From: Laetiporus sulphureus 93-53
Taxonomy: Eukaryota; Basidiomycota; Agaricomycetes; Polyporales; Laetiporaceae
Direction: 5' to 3'
Length of the DNA stretch: 64,000 bases
Assembly (NCBI RefSeq): GCF_001632365.1
Contig: NW_024468530.1
Coordinates: 310,001 to 374,000, forward strand
Positions 6,975 through 9,476 of the stretch are shown here, in pieces. The notes under the pieces are model-generated. The model had not been told where the DNA came from. It searched no databases and saw only the letters and a list, made by a program, of their open reading frames with translations. Position numbers and translations under genes: made by a program. The number at the start of each line of letters is the position of its first letter. Within the stretch, counting starts at the first letter, position 1.

Positions 6975-9014
6975 ATGGGTATCGTAGAGAAGGTATGCGT
7001 GCCATATCTTATAGCGGTGCAATTAATCATGTCGCGGCGTTATAATTCTCAGATCAAGGAGATCGAGGGTATGTGCGTGAAACCGTACGGCGCGTCCGAT
7101 GGTCTGACATGATGCGGTTCTCGGCGATGCAGAGGAGATGGCGAGGAGTAAGTCGCGTCTCTTCCTTCGGCATCTGAACTCATAGCAATTTTTTGCGGAA
7201 CAGCGCAGAAGAATAAGGCGAGGCTTGCCGTAACCTTCCGACCGAATGCGCGATTCACCATGATATCAATGAAGTAGGCTACAGAGTACCATCTCGGTCT
7301 GTTGAAGGCAAAGCTAGCCCGATATCGAGCCCAACTGCTTGAGCCTGCGACGAAATCGGGAGGCGCAGGGACAGGTTTCGATGTGCAGAAGTCCGGCGAT
7401 GCCAGGGTGGCCTTGATTGGCTTTCCCTCCGTAGGAAAGGTACTGCTCCCTCACCGTTGATCATACACCTGGAGATGTTGATTGTGTGCAAAGTCCACCT
7501 TGCTCAACAAGTGCACCCACACCGTATCGGAGTCGGCGGCGTACGAATTTACAACGCTTACCGTAAGTGCCATTACTGCCAGCTGTCGCACGATCTGACT
7601 GCTCACACGTAGGCGATTCCTGGTGTCATCGACTATCAAGGCGCGCGTATCCAGCTGCTCGACCTGCCTGGTATTGTGGAGGGTGCTAGCCAGGGTCGTG
7701 GCCGTGGTCGGCAAGTCGTCTCGACGGCAAAGACAGCTGATCTCATCTTGATCATGCTGGATGCTACCAAGTTGGAAGAGCAAAGGCGATTGCTTGAGAT
7801 TGAGCTTGACACGGTTGGCATCCGCCTCAACAAGAAAAAGCCGGATGTCGTTTTCAAGCGGAAAACAACGGGTGGGGTAAGTGTGGCCGTGTGATCGTTG
7901 ATGTTGCGATTGATTTCCGTAATGCCGCTTTCGATAGATTACGGTGAGTGCTGCCGTCGCCGCTGAGACATACGGGAAGATCAATTTGCCGAGCTTTTTG
8001 CTAGCTCAACACTACTGTCAAGTTAAGTAAGACCGATGAAAGAACGATACGGACTATCCTCGCGAGCTGTACGTAATATTCTTCCCTACGATGGCCAGAC
8101 TTGACAACTGTGCAGACAAGCTGCATAACTGCGACGTTATGATTCGTGAAGACGTGAGCACTGAAGACGCCACTCATGAAAACGACACTGATTGTGATGC
8201 CAGATCACAACGGACGAGTTTATCGACGTGCTAATTGGTGAGAGTTACGGCGTTCATACTCGGAGAGTACTCATCTGCGTGGTGCAGGAACGCGTAAATA
8301 TATCCCTTGCTTATGTGAGTGAGCCGAAGATCGCGCCCGCTTCGGCGCTTGATGCGTCGCGTAGATGTCTATAACAAAATCGACGCCATCAGCCTTGAGC
8401 AGATGGACAAGCTGGCACATGACGACCACACTGTGGTTATCAGTTGCGAGCTCAACCTCAAGTATGTATCCAGACGCATCCGGCTAGTGGCCTGGAGACG
8501 ATTGAAATAAACTTGTAGCCTCGACTACCTCATCGAACGGATGTGGGAAGAACTCGGGCTTGTTAAGGTGTACACGAAGAAGCGTGGAGCGCATCCTGAC
8601 TTGACCGATCCGATTTGTCTGCGCAAGGGTGCCACGATCGAAGTGAGTCAAAAGCTGCCTCCGGCATTCACGGAAATGAACATCACCAGGACGTTTGCAA
8701 TGGTATTCACCGATCCCTGGCAGCAAATTTCAGATACGCACTTATCTGGTAAGTTCGAGATTGCTGTTTGTCGTACAATGTACACTCATCAAAGATATGT
8801 GCAGGGTAAGTCATCCGTTGATTGTTTCGGATCCTATCCGGACCAAGTACCTGTAACTCTTTCCACTAGGGGAAATCGTCGAAGTTTTCACCGCATGCAC
8901 AGAAGGTGGGGCTCAATCACCTCGTGCAGGACGAAGATGTCGTTTCTAGTGCGCTTCTCAATTACACAGCAACGGTGGCAATGACTGATCTCCGGACTAG
9001 TTTTTACCAAGTGA
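6975..9014 (+). CDS. RBG1: Developmentally regulated GTP-binding protein DRG1 (Rbg1)
   Basis: DRG1/Rbg1 is an Obg-family GTPase that binds a DFRP partner and associates with translating ribosomes. I read 18 exons: 6975-6992, 7053-7068, 7133-7147, 7204-7217, 7278-7439, 7494-7562, 7613-7876, 7938-7943, 8005-8068, 8116-8153, 8204-8237, 8288-8314, 8365-8461, 8519-8642, 8690-8748, 8805, 8870-8948 and 9001-9014. They sum to 1101 nt, or 366 residues, against about 367 in human DRG1. Motifs are G1 GFPSVGKS (69-76), G3 DLPG (115-118), NKID (246-249), the TQKNKAT N-terminal helix and a C-terminal TGS region ending DEDVVSIFTK. Introns are 47-64 nt. Oddities are a one-nucleotide exon, a 6-nt exon and a GC-AG intron (7218-7277), described separately. 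Identity is very sure; the one-nucleotide exon needs transcript proof. Confidence 0.93.
7218..7277 (+). other. GC-AG intron in DRG1
   Basis: After KNK the next conserved residues are ATEYHLG, which begin with GCTACAGAG at 7278. The upstream exon must end at AAG (7215-7217), so the intron starts GCGAGG and ends GTAG. The only nearby GT donor (7231) would insert Arg-Leu-Ala into the otherwise invariant KNKAT segment. GC-AG introns are a known minority class in fungi. Confidence 0.65.
8749..8869 (+). other. Candidate one-nucleotide exon between two introns of DRG1
   Basis: Exon 15 ends after two bases of a Trp codon at 8748, followed by a consensus donor GTAAGT at 8749. An acceptor GCAG ends at 8804, then a single G (8805), then a second consensus donor GTAAGT at 8806. 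The acceptor CTAG ends at 8869, followed by GGG AAA. Joining TG, G and GGG AAA gives W-G-K-S in the conserved frame. The two introns would be 56 and 64 nt, like the others in this gene, whereas one 121-nt intron shifts the frame and destroys the conserved C-terminus. A one-base assembly error is the main alternative. Confidence 0.7.
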
Positions 9015-9186: not shown

Positions 9187-9476
9187 GATGGACACCGGAC
9201 CCCCACAGCATGCATTAGCAATATTTTTCCACTGAAGAAACCGTGAAAATATAGTAAAAGAATATAAAGCCCTGCCTTGGAAAAATGCTAAGAGATATTA
9301 TGTACTATTTTCCATATTTGAATAGTATATGCCCATATATAGCAATCTAATGATGGAGGAAGCTTCAATTTCTTCACCATTTTTCCAAATCGAAGCTTAA
9401 TATGTTTTCAGAGTTTCTCTACTGTTTTCCAATGGAAAAACGTTGCTATGCACGCTGTGGGCCCCTGGTGGCCATC
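9187..9476. repeat. Imperfect long inverted repeat (possible MITE remnant or hairpin)
   Basis: The left arm (9187-9234) and the reverse complement of the right arm (9430-9476) align over about 48 columns with about 10 differences. They share GATGG, CACC, CCCACAGC, TGCAT and TTTTTCCA blocks in the same order. Weaker matching continues inward, for example TGGAAAAATG on both sides, towards a centre near 9320. The interior is much more AT-rich than the flanks. The 9-base word GGTCCGCGG occurs in direct orientation outside both arms (9161-9169 and 9505-9513), like a target duplication, but the arms do not clearly reach it. No transposase is encoded. Confidence 0.65.

What the first reader, a model, noticed from the sequence alone, without database searches (positions are those of the whole stretch)
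8749..8869. A one-nucleotide exon in the DRG1/Rbg1 gene
Seen in sequence: donor GTAAGT at 8749 after two bases of a Trp codon, acceptor GCAG ending at 8804, a lone G at 8805, donor GTAAGT at 8806, and acceptor CTAG ending at 8869 followed by GGG AAA. Only with the lone G does the frame run from ...RYALIW into [17 protein letters not shown] and on to the family C-terminus, and the full model then has 366 residues against about 367 in human DRG1. Both introns (56 and 64 nt) have the size of the others in the gene; a single 121-nt intron would be twice the size and shifts the frame. The other acceptors nearby were tested by eye: each either gives the wrong phase or hits a stop. Single-nucleotide exons have been described in plants; I know of no fungal example but could not search. 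The double site may also work as recursive splicing.
Basis: partly seen in the sequence, partly recalled or inferred. Interest (0 to 1): 0.88.

Follow-up and report, generated by a model that had tools for sequence, protein, structure and literature searches.

The report
One-nucleotide exon in mushroom GTPase gene
In a polypore-like fungus a gene for a conserved ribosome-linked GTPase is interrupted by two introns that leave a single DNA letter between them as an exon, and protein models of other mushroom-forming fungi suggest that many share it and are often mis-annotated because of it.

Summary
Intron A 8749-8804, a lone G at 8805 and intron B 8806-8869 lie where stated. Of 5 GT/GC-AG splicing solutions that reach the C-terminus in frame, only the lone-G one rebuilds the family sequence. 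Both introns are within the size range of the gene's other 15 and have strong sites. An exact lone-G rescue with a GTAAGT donor arose in 8 of 100,000 shuffles. The gene is DRG2/Rbg2, not DRG1/Rbg1.
The new result is comparative. Of 95 genome-derived homologues among the 120 best listed, 48 fail exactly at this Trp-Gly junction, the worst of 16 junctions; 23 of 24 read-assembly proteins are correct there. The errors can be decoded: 14 of 14 single inserted residues fit T-codons, 16 models drop Val-Trp, and Armillaria mellea carries the predicted frameshift. They imply one base missing between a TG donor and a GGN acceptor in six orders of Agaricomycetes, so a sequencing error in this window is very unlikely.
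The kind is known: APC11 and VPS55 in land plants, CYP621A in Fusarium. This seems to be the first basidiomycete case and is apparently old. No RNA and no relative's DNA could be read.

The parts
6975..9014 (+). DRG2/RBG2 gene, coding span from ATG to stop, 18 exons and 17 introns
   Evidence: spliced model; Pfam MMR_HSR1, MMR_HSR1_Xtn, TGS; best solved match Rbg2
8690..8748 (+). exon 15 (59 nt), ends in TG, the first two bases of the conserved Trp codon (phase 2)
   Evidence: Trp-Gly in 23 of 24 read-assembly homologues and in Rbg2
8749..8804 (+). intron A, 56 nt, GTAAGT..GTGCAG, branch-point-like CTCAT 16 nt from its 3' end
   Evidence: acceptor score 6.2, the highest of 17
8805..8805 (+). 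one-nucleotide exon, G, third base of the Trp codon
   Evidence: comparative decoding
8806..8869 (+). intron B, 64 nt, GTAAGT..CACTAG, phase 0; no YTNAY branch site found (nearest by eye TGTAAC)
   Evidence: donor score 9.6, the highest of 17
8870..8948 (+). exon 17 (79 nt), starts GGG AAA TCG = GKS of the TGS domain
8949..9000 (+). last intron, 52 nt (GTGCGC..CTAG)
9001..9014 (+). exon 18 (14 nt), IFTK stop
7938..7943 (+). exon 8, a second microexon of 6 nt (ATTACG, Ile-Thr)
   Evidence: i7/i8 are also annotation trouble spots

Best explanation
The DRG2/Rbg2 gene contains a real spliceosomal one-nucleotide exon. Two ordinary U2-type introns of 56 and 64 nt flank one G that completes the conserved Trp codon of the TGS domain. 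The spliceosome recognises each intron by itself (intron definition, recalled as usual for introns of about 50 nt) and removes them one after the other. The acceptor AG of intron A is also positions -3 and -2 of the donor of intron B, so the two sites can hardly be engaged at the same moment. Either order gives the same mRNA: A first leaves CTGG|GTAAGT, B first leaves GCAG|GGGG. Shown: the sequence, the frame need, the only splice solution that fits the family, and the one-base shortfall in models of other species. Inferred: that the mRNA carries the G, the stepwise removal, and that the exon was present in an early Agaricomycete ancestor.
For: Sequence and enumeration; site scores, and intron sizes within the 47-64 nt of the gene's other 15; low chance rate with a strong donor. 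First search, 95 genome-derived models among the 120 best listed: 47 exact and 48 not at Trp-Gly; by a laxer six-residue test intact in 51 of 95, next worst junction 69 of 95; 23 of 24 read-assembly proteins exact. Decoding over three searches, 113 models, 65 not exact: 14 of 14 single-residue inserts W-X-G have X in L/S/Y/C/W, as expected if TG|GTNNGT is read four bases on to the GT at +5; 16 drop Val-Trp, as if GT of the Val codon served as donor; 6 read V-C, which needs TG joined to some other acceptor; P0117 Armillaria mellea reads the +1 frame of TG joined to GGN AAR.. (30 of 30 family residues compatible; at most 15 in 2000 shuffled tails). Five species are listed twice with one right and one wrong model: P0003/P0066, P0011/P0091, P0025/P0092, P0016/P0121, P0088/P0081. 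The DRG1-like gene of the same genome reads VWGSSAK in one open frame. RNA-supported fungal precedent with the same AGGGT.
Against: No RNA read or cDNA of this species was available. No relative's DNA was reachable, so relatives' introns are inferred from protein errors, not seen. 10 genome-derived models read W-V.., which a plain phase-0 intron would also give; 8 of 65 wrong models stay unexplained; 48 of 113 models are exact and say nothing about introns. Some models with AG plus G before GGN (such as P0112, P0054) also fit a single phase-2 intron. Other junctions with short exons also break models (69 of 95 intact at i2, 70 at i8). Intron B lacks a YTNAY branch site, as do two of the gene's other introns. 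With any GT as donor, in-frame microexons are common by chance (9577 of 20,000).
Confidence: 0.92

Rival explanations
1. A base is missing from the assembly near 8870 (a G in the G run), and a single 121-nt intron 8749-8869 keeps the frame in reality.
For: A short G run is a place where indels occur; one extra G would make TG|G GGG AAA.
Against: The same shortfall is implied in other species (W-X-G 14, Val-Trp drop 16, frameshift 1 of 65 wrong models). The stretch would be about twice the largest other intron of the gene (121 against 64 nt), and AG-G-GTAAGT in its middle would be coincidence (8 of 100,000 shuffles).
Confidence: 0.03
2. One 120-nt non-canonical intron is removed, either from TGG|TAAGT or to CTA|GGGG, so that no extra exon is needed.
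For: Gives the right frame on paper.
Against: Needs a TA- start or a -TA end while perfect GTAAGT and AG sites overlap; two introns with consensus sites explain the same mRNA.
Confidence: 0.02
3. Stwintron or strict recursive splicing: the second donor is assembled only when the first intron leaves, and no exon exists between them.
For: Consecutive splicing is likely, and AG next to GT resembles a ratchet site; stwintrons are known from fungi (listing).
Against: Intron B's donor GTAAGT is complete and uninterrupted at 8806-8811; removing A does not create it, and one base is needed in the mRNA.
Confidence: 0.02
4. Regulated event on top of the lone exon: it is often skipped or one intron retained, so that a truncated or frameshifted GTPase tunes expression.
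For: Each mis-splice spoils the protein: A retained gives W-stop, B retained gives [21 protein letters not shown], skipping gives a frameshift. P0084, a JGI contig protein, reads VWVSCLKQHAC-stop, as if one intron were kept. In plants the 1-nt exon of VPS55 has isoforms with and without it (passages of PMC8831610).
Against: No isoform data here; the other 23 of 24 read-assembly proteins are correctly joined.
Confidence: 0.1

Closest known systems
Single-nucleotide exon of CYP621A in Fusarium (Nelson and Syed 2026, PMC12940212; parts 1 and 2 of 3 read)
   Same: Nuclear gene of a fungus, lone G in AGGGT, short introns (139 nt in all in F. graminearum, 121 here), frame and a conserved motif depend on it, automatic models wrong
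   Different: Ascomycete P450, there supported by 18 SRA reads and by DNA of the orthologues; here a basidiomycete core GTPase, no RNA, and an apparent spread over six orders
1-nt microexons of APC11 and VPS55 in land plants (PMC8831610, passages only; Guo and Liu 2015, PMC4674806, part 1 of 3 read)
   [quoted passage not shown] donor of the VPS55 exon GTRAGT
   Different: Plants; supported by RNA-seq, RT-PCR and, for APC11, mutant GFP constructs; the Arabidopsis APC11 exon is an A 333 nt into a 422-nt stretch
Spliceosomal twin introns, stwintrons (search listing; passages of PMC5639578)
   Same: Two short fungal introns in direct neighbourhood removed one after the other
   Different: In a stwintron one intron interrupts a splice element of the other; here both introns are complete and one base is kept
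Single-nucleotide exons in mitochondrial genes (passages of PMC12308204; placozoan cox1 PMC5436844, title and abstract start in listing only)
   Same: One base between two introns
   Different: Mitochondrial; in the Ophiostoma case group II introns in an rRNA gene

Membership tests
Spliceosomal single-nucleotide exon (APC11, VPS55, CYP621A) | One base flanked by AG and GT, between two introns each with donor and acceptor | tested here: met
Spliceosomal single-nucleotide exon (APC11, VPS55, CYP621A) | Frame to the conserved C-terminus needs exactly that base; no other GT/GC-AG splicing rebuilds the family sequence | tested here: met
   1 of 5 in-frame solutions matches
Spliceosomal single-nucleotide exon (APC11, VPS55, CYP621A) | Uninterrupted relative or cDNA shows the residues joined | tested here: met
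   23 of 24 read-assembly homologues read Trp-Gly (taken as cDNA-like because the frame is open, source not stated by the tool); DRG1-like paralogue reads VWGSSAK in one frame; Rbg2 has VWGSSAK
Spliceosomal single-nucleotide exon (APC11, VPS55, CYP621A) | Same arrangement in orthologues at DNA level | tested here: inconclusive
Spliceosomal single-nucleotide exon (APC11, VPS55, CYP621A) | mRNA of the species contains the base | not testable with these tools
   no transcript data of this genome
Stwintron | Internal intron splits donor, branch site or acceptor of an external intron | tested here: not met
   GTAAGT of B is intact at 8806-8811
Recursive splicing at a zero-length exon | AG|GT with no base kept | tested here: not met
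   AG-G-GT, and dropping the base shifts the frame
DRG2/Rbg2 GTPase | Obg-type G domain, DRG extension, TGS domain; closer to Rbg2 than to Rbg1 | tested here: met
   some source names read DRG2 or Ribosome-interacting GTPase 2
   400 against 471 bits; a separate DRG1-like gene exists on C1

The most novel reading that the evidence does not exclude
The one-nucleotide exon is an ancient and nearly class-wide feature of Agaricomycetes (Polyporales, Russulales, Agaricales, Boletales, Hymenochaetales, Gomphales), the fungal counterpart of the deeply conserved APC11 and VPS55 one-base exons of land plants. It has been kept since early in the class by a Trp codon that tolerates no other solution, and it spoils about half of the public DRG2 models examined.
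Probability: 0.75. Interest if true: 0.66.

Novelty: new member of a known kind. Interest (0 to 1): 0.55.

Why it matters
[quoted passage not shown] My searches found three nuclear genes with a one-base exon in print: APC11 and VPS55 in plants and CYP621A in Fusarium. A further one in a core GTPase of mushrooms, apparently spread over six orders, would give a natural series of species in which to test order of intron removal and skipping, and would show that long-lived one-base exons arose outside plants too. There is also a practical side: gene finders evidently fail here, so 48 of 95 models of the first search lack the conserved join, and such error patterns can be used to hunt for further one-base exons.

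Tried and rejected
Tried without result: fungal DNA of relatives in viral contigs (no relative) and genome contigs (6 archaeal loci only). Rejected: DRG1/Rbg1 identity; stwintron and strict recursive reading; single GC-AG intron; local sequencing error. Intron A and intron B share only GTAAGT and three other 5-mers, so there is no sign of origin by tandem duplication.

Counts. The 65 non-exact models among 113 genome-derived ones of all three searches fall as: W-X-G 14, Val-Trp drop 16, V-C 6, frameshift 1, end at W 2, W followed by a T-codon 3 (P0054, P0112, P0144), reading through CAG into GGN 5, W-V.. 10, unexplained 8; for the first search alone 10, 11, 3, 1, 2, 2, 4, 10, 5 of 48. The classes were assigned by eye; only counted them and found no other non-exact model. 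Two earlier tallies were off by one: one search printed 46 exact and 49 not of 95 because its pattern missed an exact join (P0048 by its letters), and one search printed 49 exact and 64 not of 113 because it took W-W-G (P0072) as exact; one search gives 47/48 and 48/65. Two searches used wrong models as queries and are biased towards such models; rates are given only for the first search, which itself lists the best 120 of 7937 matches. P0034 (eukprot record) and 7 lgn or jgi proteins of searches (P0126, P0127, P0128, P0130, P0140, P0141, P0145) were left out of these counts. The 24 proteins of alignment A1 were picked by me from correctly joined models, so the invariance of Trp-Gly there is no independent test. 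When I checked the report I read passages of PMC8831610 and found that deep conservation of one-base exons is already known in plants; I lowered the interest scores for that (0.62 to 0.55, and 0.75 to 0.66) and dropped the claim of the oldest known case.

Full report
What is in the sequence. The letters and coordinates of the finding are right. The coding model runs from ATG 6975 to the stop at 9014 in 18 exons and 17 introns. Exon 15 ends in TG at 8748, intron A is 8749-8804 (56 nt), the exon is the G at 8805, intron B is 8806-8869 (64 nt), and exon 17 starts GGG AAA TCG. The coding sequence is 1113 nt and gives 370 residues, or 366 if intron 4 starts at AAG|GC (7218) instead of GCC|GTAACC (7230). 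The family sequence NKATEYH favours the 366 form (A22, T23, E24 and Y25 invariant in the 24 models I aligned).

Which gene. The protein has the G domain, the DRG extension and a TGS domain. Against solved chains it matches yeast Rbg2 best (7nrc_So, 471 bits) and Rbg1 less well (4a9a and 7rr5, 400 bits). Several database names are Developmentally-regulated GTP-binding protein 2 or Ribosome-interacting GTPase 2. A second, DRG1-like gene lies on contig C1 of the same assembly; part of it reads FDVARTGIASVGFVGFPSVGK, close to Rbg1. The gene of the finding is therefore DRG2/Rbg2. The assembly has 38.6 Mb in 124 contigs. The best named relatives (Polyporus arcularius, Abortiporus, then Heterobasidion) point to Polyporales or close by; the species is not established.

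Is the lone exon needed. I listed GT/GC-AG choices in the stretch. Single introns keep the frame only from a GC donor GCACTT that removes ALIW or ALIWGKSSK. Of three two-intron solutions, one inserts VSHPLI after the Trp, one replaces the Trp by CHPLI, and one, the lone G, gives [30 protein letters not shown] exactly. Skipping the G shifts the frame, keeping intron A gives Trp-stop, and keeping intron B ends 16 residues after the Trp. The DRG1-like paralogue reads AIVWGSSAK within one open frame, so the Trp-Gly pair needs no residue in between.

Site quality and chance. The other 15 introns of the gene are 47-64 nt; a single intron here would be 121 nt. By weight matrices from those introns, donor B scores highest of all 17 (9.6) and acceptor A highest of all acceptors (6.2); donor A scores 8.0 and acceptor B 4.0. 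Intron A has CTCAT 16 nt before its end; intron B has no YTNAY match, nor have two other introns. In dinucleotide shuffles of the stretch an exact lone-G rescue with GTAAGT appeared in 8 of 100,000, and any in-frame microexon up to 28 nt with GTAAGT in 244 of 100,000. With any GT as donor the figures are 539 and 9577 of 20,000. So it is the strong donor that makes chance unlikely.

Relatives: where gene finders stumble. The first protein search listed the best 120 of 7937 homologues. Leaving out one record (P0034), 95 come from annotated genomes and 24 only from sources labelled lgn or jgi, with longest contigs of 1.2-4.5 kb in 22 and 14.9 kb in 2 (I take lgn to be assemblies of public reads, which the tool does not state; the 24 bear no species names). 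At Trp-Gly 47 of 95 genome models are exact and 48 are not; 23 of the 24 are exact. By a laxer test over six residues the Trp-Gly junction is intact in 51 of 95, the worst of 16 junctions; next are i2 with 69 and i8 (after the 6-nt exon) with 70; i5 and i9 are intact in 95 of 95. Five species appear twice with one right and one wrong model (P0003/P0066, P0011/P0091, P0025/P0092, P0016/P0121, P0088/P0081); Mycena chlorophos appears twice with right ones.

Relatives: decoding the errors (reasoning mine). Suppose the genomes read TG[GT..AG]G[GT..AG]GGN and the gene finder cannot place a 1-nt exon. It may then run four bases on, to the GT at +5 of TG|GTNNGT, which inserts one residue coded by TNN. 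There are 14 models with one inserted residue, and all 14 residues can be coded by T-codons (Y 4, C 5, S 3, L 1, W 1). F, L, S, Y, C and W together make up 23 per cent of this protein, so this would be about 1e-9 by chance if the models were independent, which they are not. Ramaria rubella (P0144) reads W-C-V, which fits that GT. Or it may start the intron at GT of the preceding Val codon: 16 models lack Val-Trp. Or it may join TG to another acceptor: 6 models read V-C, impossible if TGG stood whole in the exon. Armillaria mellea (P0117) reads WVSRANLIPMRRK..: all 30 residues of a family C-terminus are compatible with the neighbouring frame of that tail, the one expected if TG is joined directly to GGN AAR TCN; the other frames and offsets give 5 to 7 and shuffled tails at most 15 (2000 shuffles). 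Two models end at W, as TG|GTAA read through would. A plain phase-0 intron (TGG|GT..AG|GGN) cannot give W-T-codon, V-C or the Armillaria frameshift; a plain phase-2 intron (TG|GT..AG|G GGN) cannot give the joins at GGN. What remains is a shortfall of one base.

How far it reaches. Single-insert or frameshift models come from Trametopsis (Polyporales), Lactarius and Lactifluus (Russulales), Mycena, Fistulina and Armillaria (Agaricales), Coniophora and Leucogyrophana (Boletales), Coniferiporia (Hymenochaetales) and Gautieria (Gomphales). I checked the order of one species each for Polyporales, Russulales, Boletales, Hymenochaetales and Gomphales and of two for Agaricales; the other placements are recalled. 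One origin early in Agaricomycetes is the simplest reading, but it is an inference, since no relative's DNA could be read.

Results that do not help. Ten genome models and P0084 read W-V.., which either a kept intron B or a plain phase-0 intron would give; the Lactarius ones (P0023, P0053) favour a kept intron B only because two other Lactarius models (P0045, P0132) show the TG donor. Models with AG plus G before GGN (P0112, P0054 and some others) fit both the two-intron and a single phase-2 layout. Eight wrong models stay unexplained. The 48 exact models of 113 say nothing about intron layout.

How it works. With introns near 50 nt, pairing of splice sites across the intron is the accepted mode in fungi (recalled). 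The AG of intron A is part of the exonic side of donor B, so both introns can hardly be held at once; they would leave in turn. Either order yields the same message. No special machinery is required, which agrees with the Arabidopsis exon being spliced correctly in rice protoplasts.

Known cases. Searches for single-nucleotide exon and other spellings, microexon or micro-exon with basidiomycete or Agaricomycetes terms and two combined searches led to three nuclear genes: Arabidopsis APC11 (PMC4674806), APC11 and VPS55 across land plants (PMC8831610, passages) and Fusarium CYP621A (PMC12940212), besides mitochondrial ones. The Fusarium paper calls itself the second example and the first in a fungus; it does not count VPS55 in the parts I read. 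Its exon is also G in AGGGT and is supported by RNA reads. The plant paper reports that one-base exons are missing from reference annotations and well conserved, as seems to be so here. I found no basidiomycete nuclear case; the one search that named this protein family returned nothing. Papers outside the held library were not searched.

Verdict. The gene name and the remark that no fungal example is known need correction. Kind: known; member: new; the likely age and spread within mushrooms are what raise the interest.

Noticed in passing
7938-7943: Exon 8 is a 6-nt microexon (ATTACG) between two introns of 61 nt each; its two junctions are also annotation trouble spots (73 and 70 of 95 models intact).
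   Followed up: partly
7218-7277: Intron 4 either starts at a poor GC donor (AAG|GCGAGG), which gives the exact family sequence, or at GCC|GTAACC, which inserts four residues.
   Followed up: partly
9205-9460: A MITE-like palindromic element of about 255 nt with ends like CACAGCATGCAT / ATGCACGCTGTG, about 190 nt after the stop codon; 18 further copies in the assembly at 85-98 per cent identity over 220 nt or more, two partial ones, and 15 opposite-strand matches of 66-74 per cent from its own inverted symmetry.
   Followed up: partly
9001-9014: The last coding exon is only 14 nt (IFTK stop); 77 of 95 genome models are intact there.
   Followed up: no
G000:C1:903797-905133 (L004-L006): DRG1-like paralogue with open frames of up to 258 residues; its Trp-Gly pair lies inside one open frame.
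   Followed up: partly
P0084 (JGI contig of 1378 nt): An otherwise joined homologue ends VWVSCLKQHAC-stop, perhaps an mRNA with one intron removed and the next one kept.
   Followed up: no
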